From Pseudocercospora fijiensis CIRAD86 (taxonomy: Eukaryota > Ascomycota > Dothideomycetes > Mycosphaerellales > Mycosphaerellaceae), in NCBI RefSeq assembly GCF_000340215.1, contig NW_006921542.1:1454267-1518266 (forward strand): DNA of 64,000 nt, written 5' to 3'. The translations under genes were made by a program, and so were the position numbers. Position 1 is the stretch's first letter. Each line of letters opens with the position of its first letter. The notes under the pieces were generated by a model. It saw only the letters and a list, made by a program, of their open reading frames with translations, was not told the origin of the DNA and ran no database searches. Below are positions 4,812 through 64,000 of the stretch, one piece after another.

Positions 4812-5008
4812 TATTAGGACTAAAGAGGTTATACGTAATTGGTATATAACCGGGCTCGAGTAAAGCTAGGGTCTCGATGCCTTAGGTAGGGCTTAGCGCT
4901 TAGTAGTAGGCTAACTTGCCTACCTTCCTCCCTCTTCTCCTAGATCTCTATCGAATACTACTTGTACCTACTACTACCCTATCTACCTGCTAATATACCC
5001 TTCTTATA
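4812..5008 (+). repeat. 5' LTR of element C (197 bp)
   Basis: Matches the 3' LTR at 11677-11873 and the 198-bp LTRs of element D. The start TATTAGGACT is the RIP form of TGTCAGGACT, which is preserved at 15042. The end TTCTTATA corresponds to TTCTTACA of the 3' copy. Confidence 0.93.
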
Positions 5009-5020
5009 TAGTATTCGATC
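5009..5020 (+). other. Primer-binding site of element C, probably self-priming
   Basis: AGTATTCGAT (5010-5019) sits one base after the 5' LTR and is the exact reverse complement of ATCGAATACT inside that LTR (4950-4959). Element D has the same pair. It does not begin with the usual TGG complementary to a tRNA CCA end. Self-priming by the 5' end of the element's own RNA is established for Tf1 and its relatives, so this is the inferred mechanism. Confidence 0.55.
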
Positions 5021-5223
5021 TACCCTTTAAGGGTAGTAGCTAGATAGTCCTTATTTTAAGCTTTTAGCGGTATAGCTACGAAAACTATCGATTTAACTAT
5101 ATTGCGCCCGAATAACGGGACCTATACGTACTATTCTATTAAAACAACCGTACTAATTATTAAGCAAGGCCTTCTATACGGCCTATTATACTAAGTTAAG
5201 CATACTAGGCCGATATCTACTAA

Positions 5224-11676: not shown

Positions 11677-11873
11677 TATTAGGACTAAAGAGGTTACACG
11701 TAATTAGTATATAACCGGGCTCGAGTAAAGCTAGGGTCTCGATACCTTAGGTAGGGCTTAGCGCTTAGTAGTAGGCTAACTTGCCTACCTTCCTCCCTCT
11801 CCTCCTAGATCTCTATCGAATACTACTTGTACCTACTACTACCCTATCTACCTGCTAACATACCCTTCTTACA
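11677..11873 (+). repeat. 3' LTR of element C (197 bp)
   Basis: Same length and sequence as the 5' LTR, with a few RIP-type differences. It ends TTCTTACA, and is followed directly by the AAAGA target duplication and the resumed H3-like tail sequence. Confidence 0.93.
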
Positions 11874-12479
11874 AAAGATAACTTTTCTTTATAATAGCCT
11901 TCGTCCGCCTACTCTTTTTAGCTTTCTCCTATCTACTTAAAGCCTTCTTATTTTTTAGTACTATTTTCCGAGGAACCTCTTTCCTTTATATATACTACGG
12001 AGAGTCTTACTTATCCGATATCTCGTTCTCGCTACGGTCTCCTTATACCTAGCTTACTTTACCCTTGCCTTTTAGGCTCTAAAGATATTTATCTATACGT
12101 TTAGGCGACGAGGGAAAAATTAATAAGCCTATAATCGTAAGGAGACATTTATACTTCTTACCTTCTAGAACAAATAGTCTTCTATTAAACCGCCTTAGTA
12201 GGTTATCGTTAGATTTATATAAAGGATAGTCGCTTAAGGAAGGGGAGGTAGCTAGCTTAGGAAGGCCCGAAGAGCTAAATCCTTAAAGTATATTTGTCTT
12301 TAAGAATATAGGGAAAGGGAAGAAGGAGAGGAAGAGCGAATAGAGAATTAGAAATAGTCTATAGGTAAGCTAGGTAGGTTACTATAGTAACTAGTCTATT
12401 TGGGTTCTAGGAATTCGGAATATATTAAAGATATATACCGGCTATATACGCTAGCTACGTTACCTTCTATATAAACGCT

Positions 12480-14900: not shown

Positions 14901-15041
14901 TATATCTATATTAACCCTCCTCTCTTCTTAAGATTCCTAATACCGTTTAGAAGAGAGATAGTTCGTAGGCGATAAGTTCCTATCCCCTAGTTTCGGGTAT
15001 TTTAAGAGTAAACCGTAGAAGTTATAGACAATTACTAGTTA

Positions 15042-15239
15042 TGTCAGGACTAAAGAGGTTATACGTAATTAGCATGTAACCGGACTCGAGTAAAGCTAGG
15101 GTCTCGATGCCTTAGGCAGGGCTTGGCGCTTAGTAGTAGGCTAACTAGCCTACCTTCCTTCTTCTCCTCCTAGTTCTCTATCGAATACTATACTGATTTA
15201 CTACTACCCTATCTACCTACTAATATAACCCTTCTTATA
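15042..15239 (+). repeat. 5' LTR of element D (198 bp)
   Basis: Matches 21953-22150 and the LTRs of element C. The primer site AGTATTCGAT follows at 15241-15250 and is complementary to ATCGAATACT near 15180-15190 inside the LTR. Confidence 0.93.
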
Positions 15240-15463
15240 CAGTATTCGATCTACCCTTTAAGGGCAGTAGCTAGATAGTCCTTATTTTAAGCTTTTAGCG
15301 GTATAGCTACGAATAAGACTAATCTAACTATATTACGCCCGAAGAACGGGACCTATACGTACTATTCTATCGAAGCAACCGTACTAATCATTAAGCAAGG
15401 CCTTCTATACGACCCATTATACTAAGTTAATTACACTAGACTAATATCTACTAATTCCGCTAC

Positions 15464-16880
15464 ATCCGCATCTTAGGGGCTAATAATACATTATTAGTAT
15501 TACCCCCTATTATAATAGCCGGCTTATTACGAAGCAACAACAACCGTGCTACCGCTAGTAGCGCTAGCAATAACAACGCTAGTAGCATAGTAACTACTAA
15601 AGTGCCTACTAAAGCACCTACTAAAGTGCTACCTACTAAAGAACCTGCTACTAGGCCTGCCGAAGAACCTATAGTTCTAGGTAACGACCTAGAGTTGCCT
15701 GTTAACGATATACTTAACAATATTGTCAATCGACGATATAGCTAGCTAGCCTTTAGCCTCTAGCTAGTAGCGAGACTTTAAGAAGCTACTTAAAACAGGC
15801 TTACTACCCTACGTTAAGAACAATAGCTAAAGGATAATCTCCTCGAGATTCGCCGCCTATAGGAAGCCCTAACAACTAACACTAAGCCGACAATAGGGCC
15901 TTCCTTACTATTAGTCCTAATTTAAAAGAAGGATGCTAAGCTTAAGGACTGTACCGTATTTAATAGCTCTAGCCGAAAGTAGTACAACGACTACATTCGT
16001 AACTGTAAGCTTAACTAGCGCAACGTACTAAGAGCGCTACTAGACGACTATTCCTTAGTCGTATACGCTATATAGTACATTAATAGCGACCTAAAGCGTA
16101 TATAGGATAACTATTTTAATTCCCTTTACGACTAGACCGCTGTTTAATAGCAAGACTATAAGACCGTTATACTAAACACCCTTAGAAACCCTATACTAAG
16201 GCAACAATATACTTAGAACTAGTACCTTCGAGCTAAACAGAAGACTAATTAATCGGCTCGCTTATTTAAAGCCTATTTAAAGACCCTCGAAGATAACCTT
16301 CCGGCTAAAACCGACTCTATATAGATCTCCGAAATACGCCCTAAACTAAGGTAGGAGCTTGTCCTTAAATTAGACCGCCGCCGTGTGTTCGAATAGGCTA
16401 ATCTTATACGTATATAATTTATAATTGAAGTAGAGACTACAGAGCGTATAGTACAGCTATAGCAACGGTTAGAATCTAAGATACGACTATCTACTAACCG
16501 TAGCCGCGGTAGAAACTAAGGAGGTACTCCCTAAACTAACGCTACTAATAATAGAAATAGTAACGACTAACGTAGAAGAGGCAGGGGCCGATACCTCGGT
16601 AGAAATCCCTAGCGAGGAAGAGGACAAGGAAGGGGCTTATTTCTATATGCCCCTAATCGTTCCTCTAATTCTAGCGCTAATCCGAGTAGATATAGCAACC
16701 TCCTAACCGGATTGAAGTGCTTCAACTACGATAGTACTAGCTACCTACTAGGCTAATGCGATAAACCTAAGGATTAGGCCCGAATCGACTATACTACCGC
16801 CGAGTACCGTAAGCACCTTTTAGCCGCTAATGCTACCCCTATCGGTTCTTCGAAAAAGGAATAAGCGCCGCACTAACTAT
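15464..16880 (+). pseudogene. gag: gag of element D
   Basis: Homologous throughout to gag of element C. It has the N-terminal four-residue Pro/Thr/Lys repeat (about 15595-15670), a matrix/capsid-like middle, an Arg/Gly-rich stretch (16490-16700) and a decayed CCHC knuckle near 16715-16760. No ATG is left at the expected start. It lies in frame 2, while pol lies in frame 1, the same -1 relation as in element C. Confidence 0.8.
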
Positions 16881-19800
16881 TAGCCTTATACGGCGTAAGA
16901 CTATCGACATTGTGCTAGCTATTATACGTACCTGTCTCGTATCGGACACGTATAGAACTAACTATAAGACTAAGGTTACACTAGATCTAGGAAATTCAGT
17001 TAGTGCCCTTATTAGCTATCGCCTAGCTAAGCAATTAGACCTTCGACAACTGCCTAGGACTAACCTACTAACCCTTGCTTAGTTTAATAACGCTCGGCAC
17101 TTAACCTACGGAGCCTACTATGTCTATATAGCCCTAAGAGACGACCTCGGCAATAAGCGCCTACTAAACTTTACTGCCTACGTAGTAGACATAGACAGCC
17201 TCCTATCTAATATTGTTATTAGCAACCCTGTTCTTAAGTACTATGCTATAGTTATAGACTTAGGCAGTTAACAATAGCGATTTAGAATCGCTAGGAAAGA
17301 GGACATTAAATACATTAATGTTAGCGAGTGCCCTAATAATATTAGGGTCCTATTTATTAGTAACCCAACCCTAGCTAATCCGACGGCCGACCTACTCGGT
17401 AGTAATAACGATAAACTAGTGCCCCCTAAAGGCATAGATCCTAAACAACTTAAGCGTATACTAGAACCTATTCGAGAGACCTATATTAATATGTTCAAAC
17501 ACTACTTAGTATCGACATTGCCTATGTTTAAAGAGACGGATTATAAGATTGATATTATAGAGGGCAAGGAGGTTCCTTTTAGCCCCCTCTACAACCTTAG
17601 CGAACGAGAGCTTGCTGTATTACGTAAGTATCTCGAGGAAAACCTAGCTAATAGCCGGATACGGTATAGTAACAGCCCTGCTAGCGCCCCTATCCTATTC
17701 GTACTAAAGAAGGATAGTAGCCTACGCCTATATATCGATTATCGTAGGCTTAATACTGTTACTATTAAAGACCGCTGTCTACTTCCTCTTATTAATAAGA
17801 CCCTCGATCGCCTTTCTAGTACCTACTACTATACTATATTAGACATTAAGGACGCCTATTACCGTATCTGTATTCGTAAGGGCGATAAATAGAAGACAGC
17901 CTTTCGCACTTATTATAGCTATTTCGAGTACTTAGGTATACTATTTAGGCTAGCTAACGCCCCTACAACATTCTAGTCCTATATCAATCGGGCCCTTTTA
18001 GGCCTATTAGACTACCTCTATATAGTTTACCTAGATAATATCCTAGTTTATATACACTCCCCTAATATTGCGGAGTACTAGGCTATAGTCCGTAAGGTAC
18101 TCGATCGCCTACGGGCCTATAGCCTATATTACAAGCCTTCTAAATGTACCTTTGCTACTAAGGAGGTGTCCTTCCTTAGCTTCCTTATATTAACTAAGGG
18201 TATTAAGGCTAATCCTAATCGGATTAAAACCATTACTAAATAGCCTATTCCTAGGTCAATTAAGGAACTATAGTCGTTCCTCGGTTTTGCTAACTTCTAT
18301 CGCCGATTTATTAAGGGCTATTCGAGGCATATAATGCTACTAACTAGGCTTGCTAAAACTATAGCTAACCCGACTAGAGAGTTCAAATAGACTAATAGAG
18401 CACAAGCCGCTTTTAACGGTCTAAAGCGACGCTTTACTAAAGTCCCCTTATTATACTATTTCGTGCTAAACAAGCAGATCCGAATTGAGACTAACGCTTT
18501 ACAGTTCGCTATATCGGCTATTATATCCTAGCAATTAGATAATAACTATTGCTAGCACCCGATTACCTTCTTCTCGCGGAAGATAATTAATACTAAGCGT
18601 CGCTACGAGACCTACGAGCAAGAGCTCCTAGCTATTATCGAGGCCTTTAAGTACTAGAGGCACTACCTCGATAGGGCTTAATATATAATATAGGTCTATA
18701 TAGACTATAACAACCTCCGTAGTATTACTAAGGTTACTAGGGTTATAGGTCGATAGGCTAGATAGGCCGTCTACCTCGCTAGGTTTGATTTTAATATATT
18801 ATATCGGCTAGGCGTAAGCAACCCTACTAATAGCCTATCGAGGCGACCTAATTACGATAGCGAAACCTAACACATTAATTCTTTGTTTCTAACCCTGTAG
18901 CATAAGATTGCTATAGCCCGTATTGTTAATAAGCACGCGTAGGATAAGCGGCTTACCGGACTCCGCGACGGCTTAAAGCATATTAATACTCTTGCTATAT
19001 TAATAGTGCGTATTAAGGCAAGGGCTAAGGACACAGATAGGAGAAGTTATAATAACTCCCTAGTCGATATCGCTATATATAGTAACAGCGATTAAAGCAC
19101 TAATACAGTTAATCCGGCTACTAGTGCTATTAGATATATATAATGCGTACCTCGTTTAATAGCGAGGCACCTATTAATAACTTGCAAATAGGGATAGTTA
19201 ATCGTTTATAGATAAGCTATTACGTGCTTAGCAGAGGGACGCCTTTGCTACTAAACGTATCGACAAGCTTATAAGTAGGCGAACGACTCGATCTAGTAAG
19301 AGTAACAATTAGTCGATCGATAACAAAGGTTATTTAAAGTTTAAGGGCAGATACTATATCCCCGCTAAATATTCGATCCGATAAGAACTTCTTAAGCGAT
19401 ACTATAATAGTAAGCTTGCCGGTTACTATAGTATAGAGAGGTCGCACGAGCTACTATCGCGTATATACTACTAGCTAAATAGTAAGCGGGATATAAAGGA
19501 ATACGTTAACACGTATGCCGTATGCTAACGTATTAAGGCGCTAAAGCATTAGCCTTTTAGCGAGTTGTCCTCTTTACCAATCCCTTACAAGCTATTTGCA
19601 GAGCTTATAATAGACTTTATTATAGGCCTTCCGCCTACTAAGCGTAGGGGCAGTAAGGACGTGTATAATGCTATCCTTATTATAGTAGATCGATTTACTA
19701 AAGGCGCTCGATACATCCCGGCGCGCAAGGATTAGACTGCTATTAATATAGTAGAGGCGCTATAGACTAACATCTTCTACACCTATTAGGGAACCCCCGA

Positions 19801-20754
19801 GGGGATAGTCTCCGATAGGGGCTCGACATTTATATCGTACTATTAGAGCGAAATATGCCTATAGCTAAGACTAAAGCATCGGCTATTAATAGCCTTCTAT
19901 CTATAGACTAACGGTCAAATAGAGAGACAGAATGCCACCCTATAGCAGTACCTACGTAGTTACATTAACGAGAACCCTAAGGATTAGGTCAATCTCCTAT
20001 AGCCTATAGAATTCGTATACAACAATAGCGTACACTTATCTACTAAAGTTTTACTATACATAGCTGTAATAGGCTAAAACGCTGCCCTACTATAAGATCT
20101 ATTTACCTCGCTCGAGGCCGAGCGTAAGGAAAGGGAAGCGCGTTAAGTACTAGAAACACTAGCGGCAATAGAACGTGTCTAGAAGATACGAGAAATCTAT
20201 GCTAAGATAGCTAAGAAGCTAACAAGGGCTTAAGAGTACTAAAAGACCTACTACGATAAGCGCTATATACCAATAACCTTCAAACAAGGCGATATAGTTA
20301 TACTAAGCACTAAGAACCTCCGTATCCGCAAACACCTATTACCTAATAGTAAAACAAGGCCTAAGCTCGCACTAAGATACATTGGCCTATTCCGTATTCG
20401 AGAGGCTAAGGGTACACAGGCCTATTAGTTGTAGCTTCTACCTTATTACACTATCTACGACACCTTCTATATATCCCTCCTTAAGCCGTACTACCTACGC
20501 GAGGGGGATAAAGCCCCTACTAAATACGAAGACATACTAGCGGATAGTGAAGAGCTGTAGTCTATAGAACGTATCCTGCGGCACCGGACTAGAAAAGGCA
20601 AGAAGGAGTACCTATTAAGATAGCAAGGCTACTTACCTAAATAGGACTCGTAGGAAGCTAAAGGTTCCTTTAAGGATATAACCGAGTTGTTAGATAAGTA
20701 TTAGACTAGCGTAAAGAACAAGAAAAAGGCTAAAAGCTTACAATGTTACTATTA
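16870..20754 (+). pseudogene. pol: pol of element D with chromodomain
   Basis: Protease (VTLDLGNSVSALI) starts at 16975. An open segment at 17419-17892 covers the start of reverse transcriptase (YYTILDIKDAYYRI). The YLDD site reads YLDN near 18030, the same change as in element C. RNase H, integrase (TNGQTERQNATL near 19910-19945) and a chromodomain (about 20560-20715, ERIL.HRTRKGKKEYLLR) follow. At the point where C has TAA (10497), D has CAA, showing that the C stop is a RIP product. The protein is not translatable as it stands. Confidence 0.87.
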
Positions 20755-21952
20755 AGGCCTAGGACAATGCTACCCCCGGGGTGCTATTAGCTAACTAATT
20801 AGAGGCCGGCAAACTAGGACAATAAGACTATACTAGGCGCGCTACAACGCGTTAACTATTCGCTACTCTTTTAGGGAACTACCTCTTTATTAGCGCACCC
20901 TACAAGACCCTTCTCTTAGCACCCCCTTGTTCTATCGGGATCTCGAGGCCTAGGCGGTCGGCGGGGATAGCGCGCGCGGATAGTAATAATAATAATAACG
21001 ACAGCGCGGCCGGCGCGGCTATATTAGTAATAGTATTGCGGAGTGTATTATCGGTTAAAGGAGAAGATTAGAAGCGAGGTAAAGTTGGCGCTAAGACGAC
21101 TAGCGCCGCTATTATTAATATTACTTGCTATTATCGCTACGCCTATAGGCACAACCTTACCTATACTACGAGCCGGAGCGTACTATACCGGTTAAGTTAA
21201 AGGAATAGCTACGTTAAAGGTTTAATCAAAACTTTAAGGCTAAGTTAAAACTTTAAGCCGCTTAAAAGATTAAGTAGACTAATAGACTAACTAACTAAGG
21301 GCAAAAACTATAGAGCTAAGCTAGCCGGGGTCGATCTTGCGGACAATAGGTTACTCCTCGATCTTTCCGACCCTTTAAGCGAGGCGAACCTCTACTACTA
21401 CACTTATAATAGCTTTTACCTATAGAAACTAGACGAGCTGTGTTTTTTGAAAGATAAGATAAGATTAACAATTAAAGGCTGCTAAACCTAACTAATTAGG
21501 GCTAGTGAAACTACGACAGTAAATAATAGCCCTCGTAATAATAAGAACAATCCCTCGTAATAATAAGAACAACCCTCGGAAGCGGACATTTCTAGGTCTT
21601 TTAAGAGTAGACGTAGAGAACTCGGTACGACATCACTTAGAACGGGGGCAGTGCTACAATACCCCGTATACCTACCTATTATAGTAGGGAAGGTGCGCTC
21701 GTATTATAATTCGTCGATAGTCCTCAATTCTTATAGTTATATATCACTTTATTATATACAAGGATAGCGTAGTTAGAGTTAGACATTATATTATATTAGA
21801 GGTAAGGTTTGATATAGTTATATAATCGGTAGTTATGCGTTTAATTTAGCGCGGACTAAGCGGCTTATTAGACCTACTAAGTTAGTAGCAATAAAGGTTG
21901 AGATTAGAATAAAGACCGGCTACGAGGGCGCGGCCTTTAGAAGGGAAGCGTA
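20755..21952 (+). other. 3' non-coding region of element D
   Basis: Equivalent to 10500-11676 of element C, including the CG-rich patch (near 20940-21030, with a short ATA/ATAATA run) and the terminal purine tract before the LTR. No reading frame was recognised. Confidence 0.55.
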
Positions 21953-22150
21953 TATTAGGACTAAAGAGGTTACACGTAATTAGTATATAACCGGACTCGA
22001 GTAAAGCTAGGGTCTCGATGCCTTAGGCAGGGCTTGGCGCTTAGTAGTAGGCTAACTAGCCTGCCTTCCTTCTTCTCCTCCTAGTTCTCTATCGAATACT
22101 ACACTGATTTACTACCACCCTATCTACCTGCTAATATAACCCTTCTTACA
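21953..22150 (+). repeat. 3' LTR of element D (198 bp)
   Basis: Ends in TTCTTACA and is followed by the AGTTA duplication. Same length as the 5' LTR. Confidence 0.93.
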
Positions 22151-22929
22151 AGTTAACCTTTAAGTCGAGAAGTTATATAACGGTATAATACCCCCTCTAT
22201 AAAGAACTTCTAGAATATATCCGTTCGCTCCTTACTACCCTATCGTATCGAGTACTTCCGGAGTTTATACTCCTTCGAACGTAAGTATAAAGGGAACTAT
22301 ATCTTAGAGACCTATTAATTAAACTACTCGGTATACTCGGGGGTCTAAAGATACGCCTAGCTAGCCTTTTCGAAGATATCCGGATTAATACTCGATATTC
22401 TTATATCTCCGAATAACCTTCTACTTAGACTCTATAAAGATAAGGGCTAGGTAGTAGTACCCTATAATAAATTCCTACTACTAGGATTCGGAGAGGATAA
22501 ATCTAGCCCTAATCGTCGTCTAGGACTCGATAGGCTCGAAGGTAAGTATACGACCTCCTCTCGACGTTGTCGTAATCTCGCTCGTATACTAGACTGTTTC
22601 GACTATCGTCTCGTTATTACCCTTCCTAGTATAGCGCCTAATATATATACAATGTCGGTTAGTATGTTTTAAGGTTTCGTACGGTAAGGTAAGGGCTTAG
22701 GAGTAGTAGATATATACTAGTAGCTATAGGGAAACACCCTTTCTTTTATAGTATCGTATCGTTAGGAATAGCTAGGTACTAAACAGCTAGCTACTTTTTT
22801 TTTGTTTCCTAGCTACCTAACTACTAGATTTTTTTCCTAGCTACCCTAGCTAGCCTAACTACTAGAATTTCTTTCCTAGCTACCCTAACTACCTGAATTT
22901 TGCCTTCTATACGGCGGCTCTCTCCTACT
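22151..22929. other. Decayed spacer with short tandem repeat
   Basis: No frame here could be assigned. Between about 22783 and 22900 there are three or four imperfect copies of a roughly 35-bp unit containing TTTCCTAGCTACCCTAACTAC. The rest may be upstream sequence of the hAT transposase or remains of the neighbouring minus-strand ORF. Confidence 0.4.
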
Positions 22930-24300
22930 AACGGAACCGAGCTACTATACCTAACGAATCTAAGCTCGTTTTTAGTCTTAATCTATCCTCTTTCGGTATA
23001 AGACACTCGATAAGCAAATGCTTAGGCCGAGTCTAACTACGAAACCTAAGACTAACTAATAGCTCTATTAACTAATCCTAATCCTCGAACTCCTTCCGCT
23101 TCTTAGTAAAGACCTTAAAGAGCGCTCGAGCTTCTTCGAGTACCTACGGAGTAGTCGAGATAAAGCCGTATCGCTAAAATAGGTAATCCTTCGGAGGCTT
23201 ATATAGAGATTTAGAGAATTCTAACGCTAACCTATCCTACTAGTAGCTTAGATTCCGGATATACGCCCTCTCTGCCTTAGTAAAGATTTTATATAGTAGT
23301 AGTACTCTGCCTTCGAGAAACGCTTTCTATTTAACTATTAGTATCTACCGGCTACGAACGCCGGCTATATATACCGAGTATAGAATAATTACCTATACCC
23401 CTTCCTCCTTTAGTAATACTTCTACCGTCCCTAGATACCTAGCCCCGATCGTATTAATCGTAAGCTACTTTGCCTTTATAGACGTAAAGGCTTCGCTCTA
23501 ATACTAATAAAGAAACTTCTACTCTATATCGAGGATACAAAGACGACTAGTCTCGATTGTAATCCTTACTAGCTTCTCGTAGTAGCTTTAACTATAATTT
23601 TCTAAATTAATAGGACTTATACCTTAGCCCTTTACTAGTATCTCGTCTCTTTAACTATACTCGATCTACTCCTAGCGCTTATCTTCTATAGCGTTAGGCC
23701 CTAAGACTATACCTATTACTAGATCGACGTATAGTATCTCCTCGCTTTTTTTAGTTTCTTTATTCGTAGTATTAAGCTCTATCGCGGTATCCTAAACTCT
23801 AGTATTATTATTCTCGGCGATCTAAATATCTCCGTTACTATCGGTTATATCGATAGAGGTAGTAGCTATAGGTCTAAATACTATTAGTTAACGTCTTAAA
23901 GAAAAATATACCGGCTATAGCTGCCGGCTACGGCTGCTAGCTATAGCTGCTAGCTACGGCCGCTAGCTAGATTAACTTACGCTACTAGAACTTTATACTC
24001 GAAAACTAGGTATAATTCTTTCCTCCTCTTAGCCTTCTCTTAGGTTATCTTCTTATTCTAACCTTTACTTTTTTCTATAGGCGCTAGCTATCGATAGAAT
24101 GCCTTATTCCGCGCCTTTCTTCTCTTATCTTTAGCTCTTTTATCCTTATCTATCTTCTCCTTTCTCTCGCGGTCTCGTACGGAATTCTTCTTCGTAGAGT
24201 ACTCCTTTTTAGTCTTACGCTTTTTAGTTAGATACTTAGGTAAAATAAACTCGCGGTCTTTAGTTCTATCTTCTATTTAGCGCGCGGCGCGCTTCTCTCT
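22930..24300 (-). pseudogene. Unidentified minus-strand ORF with basic N terminus
   Basis: Reading leftwards, a long Lys/Arg-rich region comes first (KYLTKKRKTKKEYSTKKNS, KEKIDKDKRAKDKRRKARN near 24240-24100). A more acidic part follows (SIDITDSNGDI, NTTNKETKKSEEIL near 23850-23740), then an aliphatic and aromatic part (KAFLEGRVLLLYKIFTKAER near 23320-23260, KPPKDYLF). One probable intron (about 23378-23327) begins GTATAT, has ATACTAATAG before its end and closes with AAATAG. Removing it joins two coherent frames. A second paired-TAGCCGG stretch at 23903-23970 is also flanked by GTAAGT and TAATAG. Stops are of the RIP type. I do not recognise the family. It points the same way as the hAT transposase and could be part of the same larger unit. 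Confidence 0.45.
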
Positions 24301-25199
24301 TACTATTATAAGGAAAAGGGGCGGGGGCGTAGCGTATAGTAGTTGTTGTTAGTATAGGTATAGAGGAAGAATTTAAAAGGTATAAAAATATCGCGAAGCC
24401 CTAATTGTTGCCGCCTACGTAACGTTATATAGGTAAGCTTTCGTAACTACGGCAACTACGCCCCGGTAATAGTAACTACGCCCTAGTAACGGCAACTACG
24501 CCCTAGTAACGGTAATAGAGCGTAGTAAATACAACCTAGTAACTATTATAGCCGGCAATCGTACCCGGCAGTTCGAATAAGAGTGTCTTTATAGTAAACT
24601 ACGCCCTAGTAACGGCAACTACGCCCTAGTAACGGTAAAAGAGCGTAGTAAATGTAATATAGTTACTATTATAGCCGGCAATCGTAGCCGGTAGTCGAAT
24701 AAGAGTGTCCTTATAGTAAAACTAATATAGTCTCTAGTTTAAACTAGGAATCTATATAGTTCGAAAAAACTAAACCGGAACTAGGGAGCTAGTTCGCCGC
24801 TAAGAAACCAAACTATATACGTTTAGTAGTTTAGAAACCGAACTACTACGGGGTCTAGACCTAACTCGAAACCTCCTTCCGGACTACTACGACCCTTCCG
24901 TAAAACTATAATCGGTATACTACGGGTTAATAGAAATTAGTAGTAAGGAATGAAGGGGATTTAGAATAGATATAGCAGGTATAGTAGCCGGCTAGCTAGG
25001 AAACCTTCGCCTCCCCCCTTTATTCCCTATATATATAGGCTACTACCTACCCTCTTCTTACTTCGAAGATACGGACGCGATACGTACTATAAGATACGCT
25101 ATAATATACTTACGTTCTTTACCCTAAAAACACCTAATAACCTATCTAATTTTATTAATACTATATCCTTTCTATCTCTTTTAATTATTTATCGTCTTC
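24301..25199. other. Non-coding stretch with tandem repeats
   Basis: Contains a repeat at about 24447-24720. A short unit around GTAACGGCAACTACGCCCTA recurs, and a larger block of about 123 bp, ending in TAGCCGGCAATCG-type sequence, is present twice. The remainder up to 25199 has no assignable frame and could hold the 5' LTR and leader of element F, though I could not define its ends. Confidence 0.45.
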
Positions 25200-47345: not shown

Positions 47346-48595
47346 GTACCTATCATTAGACCCCGTAGTAGTTCGGGTTAGTTTAGTTTAGTTTGCTAAG
47401 CTAAAGATCTAGTTTAGTTTAGGTTAGTCTACTAAGTAACTATAGGAGTAGCTAGTTCGAACTATAGAATTTATCGGTTTCTAAGAAGTATAAGAATATA
47501 TACGTAACTCGAAGTAAGCCCTTTATAAGACACGAGAGTATAGCCGGTAGCGTAGCCGGCATTTTTTAGTTATAGGAAGGTACTTATATAACCCTAAATC
47601 TATAGACAATTAGCTAAGGGCACTAACTAATTAAAAGTATATATATATATATATATAAGCTATTATAGTTTAGTTTAGAAACTGGACTTATTAGGTATAA
47701 ATTTCATCCTTTCGCTCGCTATTTAATTCCCTAACTACTCGGTAGAATATTATTATCTAGATCTAGGTAGAACTTATCGATTTCCCTAGAAGCCCTTCTT
47801 ACGAAGTTCTAATACTTTCCTACTAAACTATTCTCTAATATTAAGTACTAGGATAGCTCCTCCCTTAGTATCGGTATAGTATATCAAAGAGCTATAAAGC
47901 AGCTCTATACTACGTTCTACTAGTTACTCGCTATACTAAGGCCGAATGCTAGTTCGTTCCCTAGAACTCTTAGTTATTTAGTAGATATAAAGGGTAGGGT
48001 AGGTAGTAACTTCGTATTATATAGGAAGGTAGAGGCTACTATAGAGGAGTCCTTTAAACTATATAAGATAGTAAAAGATATAGAGGTAGCTATAGGTCTA
48101 GGTACCTAGTTAAATTTCTAGTAGGTAGAGTATAAGGATTTTTAGAGGGAGTATTAGGTAGAGTTGCGAAGGCAGGTATATAATATAGTCTAGAACATAG
48201 GGATAATGCCTATAACTATAAGTATTAGGCTCTTTAACCTTCGTCCTTTTTTCCTGTTTTCTTTTTATAAAAATCTAAACTAATATAAATTAACTAGAAT
48301 ATCTATTTTCTTTTAGTTCTTTAAAAGACCTAGTAGCGTAACTAGTAGCGTAGCTAGTAGCGTAGCCGGCCTTTTTAGTCCTTAGTACTAACGGGATTTT
48401 CGAAGACTTCTATTCTATACGGCTAATAAAGTATACTATACTATATATATATACTTAGAGAGTATTTAGAGCGCGGTATATAGGGCCGTATAATAGCGGC
48501 TTATTTCGTATATAGAAAAGCTTATAGATAATACTAAGAACATCCTTCCTACTAGAATATCTATCCTACCTAGCACTATCTTAAATATAGACATT
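47346..48595. other. Decayed spacer with (TA)n run
   Basis: No gene recognised. It holds an AT-rich repeat TAGTTTAGTTTAG near 47385-47430, a (TA) run of about 20 bases at 47639-47658, and TAGCCGG motif units near 47533-47551 and 48342-48375. The unit AGTAGCGTA(A/G)CT is repeated three times at about 48340-48375. Confidence 0.5.
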
Positions 48596-48681
48596 CTAGC
48601 CTTTTAGAATCTAATCGAGGGCTTTAAAATCCTTATCTATAATCGTAATACGCTTCGCGTAGATAGCTATAAAGTTAACCG

Positions 48682-48729
48682 CTAAAATAGTGTTAGTATA
48701 GTTCGAAAAGAGATATAAGAGAATTATAT
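48682..48729 (-). other. Intron 2 of the histone H3 pseudogene, 5' splice site lost
   Basis: 48 bp, branch site TACTAAC (48692-48698), 3' end TTTTAG. The first base now reads A where GTATAA would be expected after T. A TpG to TpA change explains it. With the intron left in, 16 extra codons interrupt the fold. Confidence 0.7.
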
Positions 48730-48912
48730 ATTCGAAGATACTAACTAGGTAGGCTTCTATAGCCTCTTAAAGGGCGTCTAGTATAGAGACTTAGAAGCGA
48801 AGGTCTAGTATATAATACTAGGTAATTTCGCGAATAAGTCGACGGAAAGGAGCTTTACGGAGTAGGAGACTAGAGTCCTTCTAATACTTCCGAATCTTAC
48901 GAAGGGCTACGG

Positions 48913-48991
48913 CTAATAAAGGAATAGTAAAAAGATAGTAAGAATGCCGGCTACGCTACCGGCTACGCTACCGGCTATAAATAGGACTTAC
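48913..48991 (-). other. Intron 1 of the histone H3 pseudogene
   Basis: 5' GTAAGT, 3' TTTATTAG, 79 bp. The interior carries two full TAGCCGG units spaced 12 bp apart (GTAGCGTAGCCGG pattern, 48944-48976). Removing it restores the reading frame and the GTVALR signature. Confidence 0.75.
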
Positions 48992-49283
48992 TTCCTAGGC
49001 GCTATCGACGCTTCGTACGATTATTACTACTAGTAGTAGAAGCGCTAGTCGTCGTCTTACGCGGAGCCTTATCTACCGTCGTCTTACGCGGACCCTTACT
49101 CGCGACGCCCTTTCTAGTACTAGAGCTAGCGGTAGTAGTAGTAGCCTTCGTCCGTTAATATAGTATACTCCTTCTACTACTTCCGGTCTTATTATAACCC
49201 GTAGAAGTAGTAGGTCCCTTCTTACGAGTCGTCGTAACTTAGTTAAGTAGACTCGGTCTTATAAAAGTCGTCGAATTAATAAA

Positions 49284-50542
49284 AAAAAGTATATTACGAA
49301 GATATACGTAGGCGCGCGCGGAGCGAGGGTATTATAGAGGTAGTAGATATAGAGCGTAGAGGTATAGGTATCGATACGAAGGTTAAATATAGCGAGAGAG
49401 GTAGTATCGCGGTATCGCTAGGCAATAGAGTAAGCTTCGCGTAAGCCTGTATTATAGTTACGTTAGAGTAAGGAAAGAAGATAGATACGGCTAAAAAAGG
49501 CAGATACGGCAAACTTTAAAATATAGCCGGTATATATAGCCGGTATAGTAATAGGCGAACGCCTTCTTTTAATAAATAGTCGGCGTAATAATAGTATACT
49601 ACTATAGTATAGATATTCTCTAGTAATTCCCTTACTAGCTATAGTAGTCTTATAAGTAACCTAGGCCTATTACTAGAAAATATAAGAAATATTAGGTAGG
49701 CTATATTAAATAAGTTAGTTATCTAGTAGGAAAGGGCCTACTACCGTCTCTATATATCGGCTACGAGTGCCGGCTATCGCTCTAATCTTAACTCCGCCCT
49801 ATCTCGGAGACTAAGGTACTAAGCGGAAACCCTATAGCTTATATTTGCTTAGTTATCGCGGAGGGCTTATAGGTAAGGTATTAGAAAAGAGTATAAAAAG
49901 TACGAGAAGAGTATCCTAGGATATAGGTCGTAAGTAAATAAGAGCAGCACGCCTAGTTATTTATATAGTACTACGTTACTCTATACGACTAAGAGCCTAT
50001 ATTATCTCGTACTTCGCCTAGAAGACCTCGACTCTACTAATCTACTATCGATCTCCTCCTCGGTCGCTATCTTAATTCTTCTTCGAGTTGCCGGACTTAG
50101 TACGTATCTATTGCTATATATTAGCGCTACGTATTATAGAGAATCTCTCGTTAAAGTTTCTCTCTCGTAGGCTTACTATCTGCCTCGTAGTATAGAGGAT
50201 TAAAGTACTAATACTAAAGAATCTCCTTATAGTTAGGATACTAGGGCTCCCTAGGACCTTTATATTTTACGTCTAAATAGAGACGTTACGACGTATTATA
50301 AACGTTCTATAGCCCTTTCGCTTACTACCCGCTAGGTCGCGATATACGAAGAAACTAATCTAGTTATAGCTCGTCTCTATAATAGCCGAGTAAATATAGA
50401 GCGCTAGGTTTCTACTTCGTACCTTAGATTTAGGGACGGCGCGGAGATAAAATCAAAAATATAGCCGGTACCTATAGCCGGTAAAAGGATACGAAAATTA
50501 GCCTTATCCTAGGTAAATCTAACGACTAAATTCAAATTCTAA
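49284..50542. other. Region between the two H3-like pseudogenes
   Basis: From 49641 onward this is the outer end of the left arm of the inverted repeat. It includes the single-copy form of the 353-bp repeat (near 49800-50160). Paired TAGCCGG units occur at 49522-49545, 49748-49775 and 50461-50485. The 72-codon open frame at 49294-49512 (minus) overlaps the region just upstream of H3 exon 1 but is in another frame and looks like chance. Confidence 0.45.
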
Positions 50543-51182
50543 CTAATTCGCTATAAACCGACGCCGAATTTTAGATAGAAGCTATATATCTTTATTTTAA
50601 AGAGTAACCCGCTTTATATAGATAGTAAGGAGGTTTAAGAGCTTAAACTCGGTTACGAGAAATGCCTCCGTAGCTTCCTAAAGAGTACTAATCGCCTTAG
50701 CCGTAAATCGTATACTAGACCGAAAATCTAATATAATTTCTCAGTCGAGTCGCTAGAAAGGAGTCTTAGGGATTAAAAGCTCGGTCCCTCTTTTATCTTA
50801 GAATAGCCGGATCTAGCGAAGGGTAATAGTACCTAGTTTAAAGCGCCGCTTCTTTATTACTAAGTCCTACCTTATACTCTTTTTTAAGAGAAAGATAACT
50901 TTTCTTTACGATAGCCTTCGTCCGCCTACTCTTTTTAGCCTTCTCCTATCTACCTAAAGCGTTCTTATTTTTTAGTACTATTTTCCGAGGAACCCCCTTT
51001 ATTCGTATATACTACGGAGAGTCTTACTCTTCCGATATCTCGTTCTCGCTATAGTCTCCCTATACTTAGCTTGCTTTACCCTTGCCCTTTAGGCTCTAAA
51101 GGTATCTTTATATACGTTTAGGCGACGAGGGTATATCGCTAGGACCTAGAAGATTAATAAGCCTATAATCGTAAGCGGACAT
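50543..51182 (-). pseudogene. Histone H3-like ORF, cassette 2
   Basis: ATG at 51182, reading MSAYDYRLINLLGPSDIPSS, closely matching the start of the copy at 55381. A Lys/Arg-rich tail follows. The fold lies at about 50846-50550, with TELLIP, TPF.RLD.EII and TKRVTL.NKDI.LL visible. A 2-bp deletion in an A run (near 50880) shifts the frame between tail and fold. Not interrupted by element C, whose empty site is visible at about 50885-50895. Same strand and spacing relative to the hAT transposase as in the other cassettes. Confidence 0.74.
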
Positions 51183-51619
51183 TTATACTTCTTACCTTCC
51201 GAATTAAATAGTCTTCTATTAAACCGTCTTAGTAGGTCCTCGTTAGATTCCTATAAAGGATAGTAGCTAAAGGAAGGGGAGGCGGCTAGCTTAGAAAGGC
51301 CCGAAAAGCCGAATCCTTAAGGTATATTTATCTTTAAGGATATAGGGAAAGGGAAGAAGGAGAAGAAGAGCGAATAGAGAATTAGAAATAGTTAGTAGGT
51401 AAGCGGGGTAGGTTGCTATAGCAACTAGTCTATTTAGGAATTCGGAATATATTAGGGATATATACTAGCTATATACGCCGGCTATATTACCTTCTATATA
51501 AGCGCTTTACTACTATAGTAAGTAGTCTGTTTAGCAATTCGAAATATATTAGGGATATACGCCGGCTAACTACGCCGGCTATATATACCGGCTATATTAC
51601 CTTCTACGTAAACGCTTCG

Positions 51620-53387
51620 TCTCCTTAAAGCTACTCTAAGCCTATATACGTTTCCGCTTCTCGACCTAGTATTGCCTTCTACCTCCGCCTCCTTCTATCC
51701 GTTATCGCTAATAAAGTACCGTATAGGTAGGTACTACCTAAGGGTTGCCGAGCGAAGCGAGACCTAAGCGGAATAACCGTTAGAAGTCGTTACTATATCC
51801 CTATAGGACTATATCGCAATATATATCGTAGCGGTATATCGTAATAGGGTACCGTAGTATTATTATCGCAATATCGTTATCGCTATAGCGTTATATTGTC
51901 GTAGTTAGTAGTAGGCAAGGTAGTAAGGTAGAAGTTATATAGGAGGGATATTTTAATTTCTTCTAATTAGAGGCCGACCCTGAATTTGTAGTAGCGGTTC
52001 TTTAGATTAAACCCCTAGCGAATACCTTATACGTAACGCAACTACTTCTAACTACTATTCCGCTTAGCTCGTAAATAGAAAATACCTCCCTATGCTCGTT
52101 ATAAGCTCCTCGAATACTTCGGCTTATACCTATTTACTTCGCTTCGCTCGGATAAGGGTTTCGCTTAGACTAAATTTCGTATTCTCTTCGTACTCCTAGG
52201 TTTCTTCGATCTTAAGGTTTTCTAATTCCTCGATTAAGTCCTTTAGTATAATCTTTAGTATCCTACCTTACCGACTCTACTAGAGGAGATAGTATTGGAA
52301 TACTATAATAGATTCGAAGGTAGTAGGCGAGTATATTCGATTAAAGTAGCCCTAGTAACGAGCGATACTAAAAGACCTCTTATAGCCTATATCTACGCTC
52401 GGTATAGCGAGGACGTCCCGAGCGACCGACGCTATCGTTAGTAACTTAGGCTCTAACCGCTACTATATAGCGAGAATACCGTCTCCGAATTCGTCTAGAA
52501 GACCGGTAAGATCTAGAGATTATTAGCCTTCTATCCGAGCCTACGGGTTTAGTACTTACTTACGCGCTAATAGAGATCGAACTCTTCTTTCTTTACTTTA
52601 CTAGTTACTTCCTCTTCTACCTCTACTTTCTACCTACGAAATAGATATAATATCGGAGCCTTTTAAACCTTCTTTTTCTTTATAGGAGCTATATTTAGAC
52701 TAGTTTCTTTCCGACGTTTATACTTTATAGAATATCTTTTCTAGAATAGTCTAGTAATACTTGGGCTATTCTTCGTCCCCTTTCTATTCTAGTTTCTACT
52801 AGTATATATCCTTTTCTACTAAGTTAAGTAAGTACGTAACGCTATAGATATTCCCGAACGACTAAAAGGTAGTACTATAATATTTATATAACCTAGTATA
52901 GTAGGTATCTATAGCTTTCGTTATAGCTAATTTCTCGGGAACGCTCTTCTTAGCTAGCTTAGCTACGGTTTCGTAGAGCTTATTAAAGACCTAGTTATAG
53001 TACGTAAAGATAAGGTAGATCGTCGGTCCTTAGGTTCTTCTAATCGTAGTAGTAACCTTCGCGTAATACTTACTAATATCGACGAGATACTCTACTTAGC
53101 GCTATTCGGCGGCGGTAAGCGCGAGCTACTTAATACCCTCGGAACTCTAATAGATCTCGAGAGCGGTATATAAAGTATATCCCTTCGTAACTATATAGAA
53201 AGTCGAATTAAACCGGGTCTTAACGTCTTAGGTAAAACGGAGTAGGCGCTAAGGAGGCCGCTTTTACTATCGCTTATTTTATATAATATTCTAGGTATCG
53301 GTTTTAGGGCGCTCGATTAGGTTCTTTTAAATAGCCTCGAATCGGTTATATCTCTATACGCTCGAGTTTATATATATTACTAGACGA
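51620..53387 (-). pseudogene. hAT transposase C-terminal part, cassette 2
   Basis: Starts at the inverted-repeat junction, so the N-terminal half with the two catalytic Asp blocks is missing. Readable are TRFDSTFYIVTRGYTLYTAL near 53220-53160, a middle helical region and the hAT dimerisation block (LAIPSVGI, then RSFSIAR) near 52420-52350. The last part of the frame is split by the insertion at 51712-52156. Confidence 0.8.
51712..52156. mobile_element. About 445-bp insertion in cassette 2, MITE-like
   Basis: Present only in this copy; cassettes 1 and 3 read GCTAATTAGGCTTTCGC across the site. The inner ends carry CCGAGCGAAGCGA (near 51755-51770) and its complement TCGCTTCGCTCGG (near 52137-52152), an imperfect terminal inverted repeat. 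No frame is apparent. Exact ends and target duplication are unclear. Confidence 0.45.
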
Positions 53388-53557
53388 ATATAGTTTAAAT
53401 CGCGATCCGAGCCCTCTTTAAGACGCTTAAAATTGCACTATTAAACGACGACTAAAAGAAGATCCTAGATAAGGATAAAGCAAAGTCGAAAGTTAAGAAA
53501 CTCGTTATAGTAATAAGATAGGATAAGGTAGAGAGCCTCGCTCTCGTTTTAAATAAG

Positions 53558-53626
53558 GTATAACTTTTATCCGGAGCTAGTACCTATAGCTAGTAACCTA
53601 GTATAGTTCTAACTGTTTTTCTCTAG
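53558..53626 (+). other. Predicted intron in hAT transposase
   Basis: 69 bp, GTATAA at the 5' end, GTTCTAAC before CTCTAG at the 3' end. It contains a degenerate pair of TAGCCGG-type units. In cassette 1 the matching intron (near 13872-13804, minus) has an intact pair. Confidence 0.65.
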
Positions 53627-54898
53627 CCTCGTCGTTTAGTAATATATATAAACTAGAGCTTATAGAGATATAACCGATTCGAGGCTATTTAAAAGAACCT
53701 AATCGAGCGCTATAAAACCGATATCTAGAATATCGTATAGAATAAGCGATAGTAAAAGCGGCCTCTTTAGCGCCTACTCTATTTTACCTAAGACGTTAAG
53801 ACCCGGTTCGATTCGACTTTCTATATAGTTACGAGGGGGTATACTTTATATACCGCTCTCGAGATCTATTAGAGTTCCGAAGATATTAAGTAGCTAGGAC
53901 TTACCGCCGCCGAATAGCGCTAAGTAGAGTATCTCGTCGATATTAGTAAGTATTACGCAAAGGTTACTACTAGGATTAGAAGAACCCGAGGACCGACGAT
54001 CTACCTTATCTTTATATACTATAATTAGCTCTTTAATAAGCTCGACGAAACCGTAGCTAAGCTAGCTAAAAAGAGCGTTTCCTAGAAAGTAGCTATAACG
54101 AAAGCTATAGATACCTCCTATACTACGTTATATAAATATTATAGTACTACTTTTTAGTCGTTCGGGGATATCTATAGCGTTACGTACTTACTTAACCTAG
54201 TAGAAAAGGATATATACTAGTAGAAGCTAGAACAGAAGAGGGACGAGGAATAGCCTAAGTATTACTAGACTATTCTAGAAAAGATATTCTATGAGCGTCG
54301 GAAAGAAACTAGTCTAAATATAGCTCCTATAAAGAAAAAGAAGGTTTAGAAGGCTCGGATATTATACCTATTTCGTAGGTAGGAAGTAGAGGTAGAGGAG
54401 GAAGCAACTACTAAAGTAAATAAAGAAGAGTTCGATCTCTATCGGCGCGCGGGTACGTACTAAACCTATAAGCTCGGAAAGAGGGCTAATAATCTCTAGA
54501 TCTTACCGGTCTTCTAGACGAATTCGGAGACAATATTCCCGCTATATAGTAGCGGTTAGAGCCTAAGTTTCTAACGATAGCGTCGGTCGCTTAAAACGTC
54601 CTCGCTATACCGAGCGTAGGTATAGGCTATAAGAGGTCTTTTAGTATCGCTCGTTATTAGGGCCGCTTTAATCGAATATACTCGCCTACTACCTTCGAGT
54701 CTATTATAGTATTCCGATACTATTTCCTCTACTAGAGTCGCTAAGGTAGGATACTAAAGATTATACTAAAGGACTTAATCGAGGAATTAGAAAACCTTAA
54801 GATCGAAGAAACCTAGGAGCGCGAAGAGAATACGAAATTTAGTCTAAGCGAAAGCCTAATTAGCGATAACAAAGAGGAGGAGGGCGGAGGTAGAAGGC

Positions 54899-54998
54899 NN
54901 NNNNNNNNNNNNNNNNNNNNNNNNNNNNNNNNNNNNNNNNNNNNNNNNNNNNNNNNNNNNNNNNNNNNNNNNNNNNNNNNNNNNNNNNNNNNNNNNNN
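54899..54998. other. Assembly gap of 100 N
   Basis: Exactly 100 N, a conventional placeholder. Flanks align to cassettes 1 and 2, where only six bases (GATACT or AATACT type) separate the same flanking sequences. Confidence 0.95.
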
Positions 54999-55380
54999 AG
55001 GTCGAGAAGCGGAAACGTATATAGGCTTAGAGTAGCTTTAAAGAGACGAAGCGTTTATATAGAAGGTAACGTAGCTAGCGTATATAGCCGGTATATATCT
55101 TTAATATATTCCGAATTCCTAGAACCCAAATAGACTAGTTACTATAGTAACCTACCTAGCTTACCTATAGACTATTTCTAATTCTCTATTCGCTCTTCCT
55201 CTCCTTCTTCCCTTTCCCTATATTCTTAAAAACAAATATACTTTAAGGATTTAGCTCTTCGGGCTATCCTAAGCCGGCTACCTCCCCTTCCTTAAGCGAC
55301 TATCCTTTATACGAATCTAACGATAACCTACTAAGGCGGTTTAATAGAAGACTATTTGTTCTAAAAGGTAAGAAGTATAA

Positions 55381-56022
55381 ATGTCTCCTTACGATTATAG
55401 GCTTATTAATTTTCTAGGTCCTACCGATATACCCTCGTCGCCTAAACGTATAGATAAATATCTTTAGAGCCTAAAAGGCAAGAGTAAAGTAAGCTAGGTA
55501 TAAGGAGACCGTAGCGAAAACGAGATATCGGAAGAGTAAGACTCTCCGTAGTATATATAAAAGAAAGGGGTTCCTCGAAAAATAGTACCGAAAAATAAGA
55601 AGGCTTTAGGTAAATAGGAGAAAGCTAAAAGGAGTAGGCGGACGAAGGCTATTACGAAGAAAAGGTATCTTTCTAATAAAAAAAAGGGAATAAGGTAGGA
55701 CTCGACGATAAGAAAGCGGCGCTTTAAACTAGATACTATTACCCTTCGCTAGATCCGGCTTTTCTAAAATAAAAGAGGGACCGAGCTTTTAATCCCTAAG
55801 ACTCCCTTCTAGCGACTTATCTAAGAAATTATTCTAGATTTTCGGTCTAGTATACGATTTACGGCTAAAGCGATTAGCACTCTTTAGGAAGCTATAGAGG
55901 CATTTCTCGTAACCGAGCTTAAGCTTTTAAACCTACTTGCTATCTATACGAAGCGGGTTACTCTTTAAAATAAAGATATATAGCTTCTAGCTAGAACTCG
56001 GCGTCGGTTTATAGCGGATTAG
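55381..56022 (+). pseudogene. Histone H3-like ORF, cassette 3 (best preserved frame)
   Basis: 214 codons without indel, from ATG (MSPYDYRLINFLGPTDIPSS) to TAG, though that TAG may be a lost Gln. A basic tail of about 100 residues (KKGVPRKIVPKNKKALGK, KRSRRTKAITKKRYLSNKKK) leads into the fold at about 55720-56010: TITLR.IRLF, GTELLIPKTPF.RLI.EII, RFTAKAISTL.EAIEAFLV and TKRVTL.NKDI.LL. The dots are TAG/TAA at Gln-like sites. H3 has the same order and spacing except for two extra residues before TELLI and one near the end. It lies about 310 bp after the hAT transposase on the same strand. The function would be nucleosome assembly or a derived role; the tail shares little with canonical H3. Confidence 0.78.
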
Positions 56023-57000
56023 TTAGAAATTATATTTAGTCGTTAGATTAACCTAGGAGGAGGCCTATTTTCGTATCCTTTTACCGGCTATAGATACCGG
56101 CTATATTTCTAATTTTATCTCCGCGCTGTCCCTAAATCTAAGGTACGAAGTAGAAACCTAGCGCTCTATATTTACCTAGCTCTTATAGAGACGAGCTATA
56201 TTTAGGTTAGTTTCTTCGTATATTACGACCTAGCGGATAGTAAGCGAAAGGGCGATAGAACGTTTATAATACGTCTCTATTTAGACCTAAAATATAAAGG
56301 TCCTAAGGAGCCCTAGTATCCTTACTATAAGGAGATTCTTTAGTATTAGTACTTTAATCCTCTATACTACGAGGTAGATAGTAAGCCTACGAGAGAGAAA
56401 CTTTAACGAGAAATTCTCTATAATACGTAGCGCTATTATATAGCTATAGATACGTACTAAGTCCGGTAACTCGAAGAAGAATTAAGATAGCGTATTAGCG
56501 ACCGAGGAGGAGATCGATAGTATACTAGTAGAGTCGAGGTCTTATAAGCGAAGTTATAGATAATATAGGCTCCTAGTTATTTAGAGTAACGTACTATATA
56601 AATAACTAGGCGTACTACTCTTATTTACTTACGACCTATATCTTAGGATACTCTTCTCGTACTTTTTATACTCTTTTCTAATACTTTACCTATAATCGCT
56701 CCGCGATAACCGAGTAAATATAAGCTATAGGATTTCCGCTCGGTACCTTAGCCTTCGAGATACGGCGGAGTTAATTCTCTATAATACGTAGCGCTATTAT
56801 ATAGCGATAGATACGTACTAAGTCCGGCAACTCGAAGAAGAATTAAGATAGCGACCGAGTAGGAGATTAATAGTATATTAGTAGAGTCGAGGTCTTATAA
56901 GCGAAGTACGAGATAATATAGGCTCTTAGTCGTATAGAGTAACGTACTATATAAATAACTAGGCGTACTACTCTTATTTACTTACGACCTATATCCTAGG
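56023..57000. other. Downstream part of cassette 3 with 353-bp tandem repeat
   Basis: A paired TAGCCGG motif at 56085-56106 sits in a possible intron (GTATCC to TTTCTAAT and beyond) just after the H3-like stop, so the ORF may once have continued. Two copies of the 353-bp repeat follow (markers at 56633 and 56986). The second is interrupted by element B at 57001 and resumes at 63726. Confidence 0.5.
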
Positions 57001-57704: not shown

Positions 57705-57739
57705 GTAGCCCCTCCCCCCTCGTTCTACGCGGAGTTCCT

Positions 57740-63016: not shown

Positions 63017-63720
63017 TATAAGGGTCGGAGGCTAAGTAGTAAGAATATATACGAAACTTTAAACTAAACTAAAGGGAATACTAAATTAATATAGCTGCTA
63101 TCTATATAAGACGAACTACGAAGAAAGGAAGAAGGGTACCTTAGAGGGAGAGCCCCTTCCTTAGTATTCCGCCCTACGGCCGTCTAGCGCGTCCGACGCG
63201 TAAGCGTAAGTACGTATATCCTACTTGCTAACTTCTTAGCAAACTTCTACTTTTAGGTCCTTCTCTACGCGCTAAGTACGCGCGCGCGTATCCCGCTTAT
63301 CCGCTATCTCGTAGCGCCTTTATCTCCTAGCTAACTTGCGTAGCGCGTATATACGAACTCGTTTAACCGCTCTTAAGTAAATATATTTCTCCTAGCTCTT
63401 CCCCACTTTCCGGTTCCTTCCTACTACTCGGATCTGTCCTACGACTCTATATATCTCGCTTACTATCGTCCGTATACGCGTACGCGTAGTTTAGTATAGT
63501 CCCGTCGTTTGTATATTAATATATAACGTATTGTTATACTATATATAGCCTCCGCGGGAGTCCCTAAGATGTTACGTTATACGGCTAAATAGGCGGCTAA
63601 CTAGGCGACCTGCTTTACTAGGGGCCCCTACTACTAAGGCAACTTAAATCCGATATTACTTTATAGTATAGCGGCTAGCTTATAGGACTTGTCGGTGCTT
63701 TCTAGGCAGCTACTATAATA
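63017..63720 (-). repeat. 5' LTR of element B (704 bp)
   Basis: Right-hand LTR. The internal region beyond it (reading leftwards) begins TTACAAACTGCC, the probable primer-binding site, which is not a standard TGG-type site after RIP. Confidence 0.93.
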
Positions 63721-64000
63721 CTAGGATACTCTTCTCGTACTTTTTATACTCTTTTCTAATACCTTACCTATAAGCGCTCCGCGATAACCGAGTAAATATA
63801 AGCTATAGGGTTTCCGCTCGGTACCTTAGCCTCCGAGATAGGGCAGAGTTAAATTTAGAGCGATAGCTGGCACTCGTAGCTAGTATATAGAGACGATAGT
63901 AGGCCTTTCCCTACTAAATAACTAGCTTGTTTAGTATAGCCTACCTAATATTTCTTATATTTACTAGTAATAGGCCTAGGTTACTTATGAGATTACTATA

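What the first reader, a model, noticed from the sequence alone, without database searches (positions are those of the whole stretch)
53395..56022. Histone H3-like gene travelling with a hAT transposase
A histone-fold ORF with clear H3 blocks (TELLI, PF.RLVREI, EA.EAFLV, KRVTL.NKDI.L) lies about 310 bp downstream of a hAT transposase on the same strand. The pair recurs in three places in this window (4457-14900 minus, 50543-53387 minus, 53395-56022 plus) with the same spacing and the same ATG. I know of no hAT transposon described with an H3-type passenger. A mobile element carrying its own nucleosome component, possibly to influence chromatin at its insertion sites, would be new. The functional idea is inference; the linkage is seen directly.
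Basis: partly seen in the sequence, partly recalled or inferred. Interest (0 to 1): 0.93.

Follow-up and report, generated by a model that had tools for sequence, protein, structure and literature searches.

The report
Dead fungal transposon carrying histone H3
A fungal jumping gene picked up histone H3-like genes and spread them before the fungus mutated the copies to death; the case was already published in 2019, and this work only adds details on how the histone genes are built.

Summary

Dhillon et al. 2019 (PMC6710886) describe this family in Pseudocercospora fijiensis: 784 H3-like copies, 9.5-9.9 kb, two H3 copies per element, RIP-killed. The unnamed 73.9-Mb genome matches in size, element anatomy and native H3 on contig 6. 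hAT plus H3-like is also published for Pyrenophora (2013).

Additions: (1) the published '16-aa insertion' of the second H3 copy looks like a 48-nt intron, and another intron lies one codon from native H3 intron 2, same phase; this argues against a pure mRNA origin for that copy. (2) Between subfamilies of the first H3 copy, length changes are multiples of three inside the ORF (4 of 4) but not upstream (0 of 3), hinting at a once-maintained protein; the codon-position test is not significant. (3) Window copies 1 and 3 share a nested insertion, so are not independent. Any effect on chromatin is untested; every copy read is dead.

The parts
53388..57000 (+). Copy 3 of the hAT element, left end missing (element positions about 3842-7136); goes on at 63713-64000 and beyond the window to its right TIR (L004:2265-2284)
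54559..54651 (+). hAT dimerisation-like stretch of copy 3 (weak, below cut-off)
   Evidence: PF05699 12.2 bits, cut-off 21.4; same domain over cut-off in other copies
54899..54998 (.). 100-N gap in the assembly, between hAT and H3-like
55381..56034 (+). H3L-A of copy 3: H3-like gene with long basic tail, stops inside; fold about 55735-56001
   Evidence: PF00125 76.5 bits
57001..63724 (.). Retrotransposon-like insertion in copy 3 (708-bp direct repeats at its ends)
63713..64000 (+). Copy 3 of the hAT element resumes
47357..53387 (-). Copy 2 of the hAT element, left end missing; abuts copy 3 head to head at 53387/53388
47357..47376 (+). Right TIR of copy 2, 20 of 20 match
50564..50833 (-). H3L-A fold of copy 2 (2-nt deletion in the ORF)
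48623..48910 (-). H3L-B fold of copy 2, second H3-like gene, holding the 48-nt proposed intron
   Evidence: PF00125 63.6 bits for 48581-48910
22146..24857 (-). Copy 1 of the hAT element, left end with TIR 24838-24857
11874..15041 (-). Copy 1, middle part (hAT region and start of H3L-A)
3479..4813 (-). Copy 1, further part with the H3L-A fold at 4478-4744; its right TIR lies outside the window (L003:3681-3700)
4811..11871 (.). Retrotransposon-like insertion splitting H3L-A of copy 1 (about 196-bp end repeats)
15040..22148 (.). Second copy of that insertion, also inside copy 1 of the hAT element

Best explanation
[quoted passage not shown] A hAT element took up histone H3-type coding DNA between its TIRs (transduplication), multiplied by transposition to hundreds of copies, and its copies were then mutated by RIP (CpA to TpA), leaving stops in both H3-like genes (H3L-A, H3L-B) and the transposase. 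Shown here: H3-type fold, place between TIRs, TSDs, RIP bias, stops. Inferred: organism name; that the H3-like proteins were once made; that H3L-B still has two introns and so was not taken up purely as a spliced transcript.
For: Histone profile over cut-off; TIR TAGACCCCGTAGTAGTTCGG and 8-bp TSD perfect in c13a, c2b, c6a; lengths 9663, 9783, 9663 bp; two H3-like genes per element; RIP indices TpA/ApT 1.87-1.95 and (CpA+TpG)/(ApC+GpT) 0.06-0.09 in window copies 2 and 3 against 0.53 and 1.36 at the native H3 locus; 772 and 780 first-look candidates beside 784 published; native H3 on contig 6 with two introns, published: scaffold 6, three exons.
Against: 3 of 6 two-ended copies lack a matching TSD or TIR pair: c11a (3 of 8), c2a (no TIR pair), window copy 1. 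The paper reports DUF659 in the family; the one copy scanned here gave no transposase domain. The published TIR letters are only in a figure and could not be compared.
Confidence: 0.94

Rival explanations
1. Pure retrocopy capture (the 2019 authors' reading): a spliced H3 transcript was taken up, and the 16-aa insertion in the second copy is a coding mutation.
For: H3L-A runs without interruption through the place of native intron 2. 48 nt is a multiple of three and the insert has no stop in the copies read, so it can be read as coding.
Against: H3L-B: the tail-like and fold parts lie in different frames, parted by 67-103 nt (all 1 more than a multiple of three), GTAAGT in 14 of 14 copies and AG at the end in 13 of 14, the joint reading G-T-V-A-L(or I) as in native H3, one codon from native intron 2 and same phase 1. 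The 48-nt insert ends in AG in 14 of 14, has ACTAA[CT] in 12 of 14, and leaving it out gives native H3 spacing. Intron-like composites: 4, 3, 4 hits on the coding strand of three copies (overlapping pairs counted twice), 0 on the other, expected 0.1-0.27. Against the intron reading: GT at the 5' end of the 48-nt insert is kept in 1 of 14 copies only, and the one copy without AG at the first intron shows GG, which RIP could have turned into AG elsewhere.
Confidence: 0.25
2. H3L-A/B were working passenger histones that helped the element (for instance against silencing) until RIP killed them.
For: 4 of 4 distinct length changes between H3L-A subfamilies are multiples of three in the ORF, 0 of 3 upstream, 2 of 4 downstream; transversions 31/632 in the ORF against 31/343 upstream, p=0.013. 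Pyrenophora has intact, expressed H3L in a hAT (PMC3538342).
Against: Codon-position test not significant (12/211, 7/212, 12/209; p=0.31) and for A1 against A3 it leans the other way (9, 4, 3; p=0.94). Small numbers; all copies read carry stops. No functional datum.
Confidence: 0.25
3. The H3-like ORF is a chance or low-complexity match, or lies outside the transposon.
For: Basic tail; transposase domain weak.
Against: 76.5 bits over the whole fold; inside TIR/TSD-bounded copies.
Confidence: 0.01

Closest known systems
H3-carrying hAT family of Pseudocercospora fijiensis (Dhillon et al. 2019, PMC6710886; abstract, Results, Methods, first part of Discussion read)
   Same: Element length, two H3-like copies, 20-bp TIR, 8-bp TSD, RIP, native H3 on scaffold 6, about 780 copies
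   Different: Authors could not find the dimerisation domain (found here over cut-off in 4 copies) and read the capture as an intronless transcript; here H3L-B shows two likely introns
H3L-carrying hAT of Pyrenophora tritici-repentis (Manning et al. 2013, PMC3538342; passages and first part of one section read)
   Same: hAT with H3-like gene between TIRs; H3-like neither canonical H3 nor CenH3
   Different: 5.6 and 2.3 kb, nearly unmutated, expressed; the 2019 paper reports no DNA similarity between the hATs; sequence not compared here
Repeat R25 of Stagonospora nodorum (Hane and Oliver 2010, PMC3017866; passages read)
   Same: RIP-damaged repeat with histone H3 and weak DNA-transposon similarity
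   Different: Not called hAT; no TIR/TSD given in the passages seen

Membership tests
hAT transposon superfamily | 8-bp target site duplication | tested here: met
   8 of 8 in 3 of 6 two-ended copies; not in c11a, c2a, window copy 1
hAT transposon superfamily | Short terminal inverted repeats | tested here: met
   20 of 20, 20 of 20, 17 of 20 and 18 of 20 in four copies
hAT transposon superfamily | Transposase with C-terminal dimerisation domain | tested here: met
   Over cut-off in 4 copies with H3-like 830-893 bp downstream; below cut-off in the window copy; none in copy c2b
hAT transposon superfamily | Catalytic RNase H-like core | not tested
   Frames too broken; no residue check made
P. 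fijiensis H3-hAT family of 2019 | 9.5-9.9 kb, two H3-like copies, second with 16-aa insertion, RIP | tested here: met
P. fijiensis H3-hAT family of 2019 | DUF659 in the transposase | tested here: inconclusive
   No hit in read-through frames of one copy
P. fijiensis H3-hAT family of 2019 | Captured H3 lacks introns | tested here: inconclusive
   H3L-A unbroken at the place of intron 2; H3L-B has an intron-like stretch there
Canonical histone H3 | H3 histone fold with H3-length loop 1 | tested here: met
   PF00125; fold identity to native H3: A1_c2b 53.5%, B_c2b 65.9%
Canonical histone H3 | Conserved tail ARTKQTARKSTGG | tested here: not met
   H3L-A has a long different basic tail; H3L-B tail only similar
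CenH3 | Longer loop 1 with RWQS and closer identity to CenH3 | tested here: not met
   No loop insertion; A1_c2b 50.0%, B_c2b 56.1% to native CenH3, lower than to H3

The most novel reading that the evidence does not exclude
hAT elements of Dothideomycetes carry selected, intron-bearing histone H3 variants as working genes of the transposon, used to shape chromatin at its own copies; the family in this window is a dead branch of such a lineage, with two different variants per element, at least one taken up as genomic DNA.
Probability: 0.2. Interest if true: 0.8.

Novelty: already known. Interest (0 to 1): 0.3.

Why it matters
The finding itself is in print. What would matter is whether the histone was a useful passenger: a mobile element that keeps its own histone variants would be a new way for a transposon to meet chromatin silencing. 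The likely introns in H3L-B also question the published account of how the gene was captured, and can be checked in any related genome with less damaged copies.

Tried and rejected
CenH3 origin for the H3-like genes: rejected on loop length and identity. A shared origin of H3L-A and H3L-B: the tree of 37 rows has 18 of 34 inner branches open and does not decide it. Protein search for relatives of H3L-A: 4 proteins at E <= 0.001 among 202 candidates, 32-43% identical, H3-like, genomic context not examined. Rfam on 47000-57000: no match. Composite transposition of the head-to-head copies 2 and 3: outer flanks CCTATCAT and TCGCGAAG differ. Structure prediction was not run. Paper search returned 628 papers, the 15 listed concerning other topics, and was no use.

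Full report
What is there. The reported ORF at window:55381-56034 (+), stops read as Q, matches Pfam Histone with 76.5 bits (cut-off 26.4) and H3 chains in the PDB (176 distinct sequences, 60 shown, all H3 types). I call it H3L-A. It has a tail of about 115 residues, mostly basic and unlike the canonical H3 tail, before the fold.

The element. Ten further copies of the hAT segment were fetched as 20-kb pieces, of 40 scored among 394 candidates. Complete copies are 9663, 9783 and 9663 bp, start and end with TAGACCCCGTAGTAGTTCGG and its complement, and c13a, c2b and c6a have perfect 8-bp duplications; c11a does not (3 of 8), c2a gave no TIR pair, and window copy 1 has both TIRs (20 of 20 and 19 of 20) but different flanks. 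In c2b element coordinates, the hAT segment is 4095-5314, H3L-A begins at 5740 with its fold at 6091-6360, and a second H3-like fold, H3L-B, lies at 8027-8314. Both histone genes are therefore inside the TIRs. The hAT dimerisation domain is weak in the window copy (12.2 bits) but over cut-off in 4 other copies, with a fifth just under, 830-893 bp upstream of an H3-like hit. A Pfam scan of one copy's frames found no transposase domain.

The window copies. Copy 1 (-) runs 24857-22146, 15041-11874 and 4813-3479 and out of the window, cut by two retrotransposon-like insertions (4811-11871, 15040-22148) and a third at 3478. Copy 2 (-) is 53387-47357. Copy 3 (+) is 53388-57000 and from 63713 on, cut by the insertion 57001-63724. 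Copies 2 and 3 abut head to head with their left ends missing. Copies 1 and 3 share the same insertion at the same place, 97.9% alike over 4.8 kb; most simply they are a duplicated segment.

RIP. Window copies 2 and 3 have TpA/ApT of 1.95 and 1.87 and (CpA+TpG)/(ApC+GpT) of 0.09 and 0.06; the native H3 locus has 0.53 and 1.36. Of 150 scored histone hits 148 carry 4-7 stops. All 18 H3L-A and 14 H3L-B copies aligned or translated carry stops. No RIP reversal was done.

Prior work. Dhillon et al. 2019 (PMC6710886; abstract, Results, Methods and first part of the Discussion read) describe this in P. fijiensis: 784 H3-like copies, 4.1% (3 Mb) of the genome, one or two per element, full-length elements of 9.5-9.9 kb, 20-bp TIR, 8-bp TSD, native H3 with two introns on scaffold 6, and a 16-aa insertion in the second copy. 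The native H3 here is on contig 6 and has two introns. The same paper lists five more species. Manning et al. 2013 (PMC3538342; passages and part of one section) report an expressed H3-like gene in a hAT of P. tritici-repentis. Hane and Oliver 2010 (PMC3017866; passages) report histone H3 in repeat R25 of S. nodorum. So the finding is already known (paper searches).

New details 1: introns in H3L-B. In 14 copies from the ten fetched pieces and three window copies (one fetched piece, c9b, held none), the 48-nt insert ends in AG in 14 of 14 and has ACTAA[CT] near its end in 12 of 14; its first six letters are ATATAT in 7, ATATGT in 4, and GTATAT, ATATAA, ACACAT in one each, so GT itself survives in one copy; a TG-to-TA change by RIP would explain the others (inference). 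Leaving the insert out gives the spacing of native H3. Further upstream, a tail-like part in another frame ends at GTAAGT (14 of 14), 67-103 nt before an AG (13 of 14; GG in c11a, which leaves open that RIP made the AG), and the joint reads G-T-V/I-A-L. Native H3 intron 2 is phase 1 in the Gly codon; this one is phase 1 in the next codon, Thr. A scan for such composites in three copies found 4, 3, 4 for the short type and 1, 2, 1 for the long type on the coding strand (overlapping pairs counted twice) and none on the other; 30 simulated sequences per copy gave 0.1-0.27 and 0.1-0.23 per strand. The three copies are related, so this is not three tests. The further hits lie in the left half of the element. 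H3L-A runs on without a break at that place. This speaks against a pure transcript capture for H3L-B.

New details 2: was the histone kept? H3L-A has diverged subfamilies (A1: 12 copies, A2: 5, A3: 1; window copy 1 left out because it is split). Distinct length differences between them in the ORF are 3, 6, 12 and 21 nt (4 of 4 multiples of three), upstream 7, 1, 1 (0 of 3), downstream 151, 30, 3, 5 (2 of 4) (the flanks were printed for 4 of 5 A2). Private changes in single copies, which came later, are not multiples of three. Transversions, which RIP does not make: 31/632 in the ORF against 31/343 upstream (p=0.013). By codon position 12/211, 7/212, 12/209 (p=0.31), and A1 against A3 9, 4, 3 (p=0.94): not significant. 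So constraint is hinted at and not shown.

H3 or CenH3? Fold identity to native H3 and CenH3 is 53.5 and 50.0% for A1_c2b, 65.9 and 56.1% for B_c2b; neither has the longer loop 1 of CenH3. The tree does not settle whether A and B are sisters.

Verdict. Real, published, dead copies; the functional idea is open. Interest 0.3 for the details and for the open question.

Noticed in passing
window 53387/53388: Two hAT copies with missing left ends abut head to head; fetched piece c1b has a similar head-to-head joint at another point. Possibly a recurrent by-product of transposition or rearrangement.
   Followed up: partly
window 57001-63724, 1-3478 and 41811-47356: Retrotransposon-like element with 708-bp end repeats; copies in hAT copies 1 and 3 sit at the same point, and a diverged one (82-85%) lies next to the right TIR of copy 2.
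   Followed up: partly
window 4811-11871 and 15040-22148: Two copies of another element with about 196-bp end repeats, both inside hAT copy 1.
   Followed up: no
L025-L028, L031 and L030: Diverged H3L-A subfamilies in the same genome (called A2 and A3).
   Followed up: yes
L028: An H3L-A2 copy whose upstream part is replaced near a TIR-like sequence, so perhaps a shortened element.
   Followed up: no
c2b element positions 1525 and 3590: Intron-like composites in the left half of the element, perhaps introns of the transposase gene.
   Followed up: no
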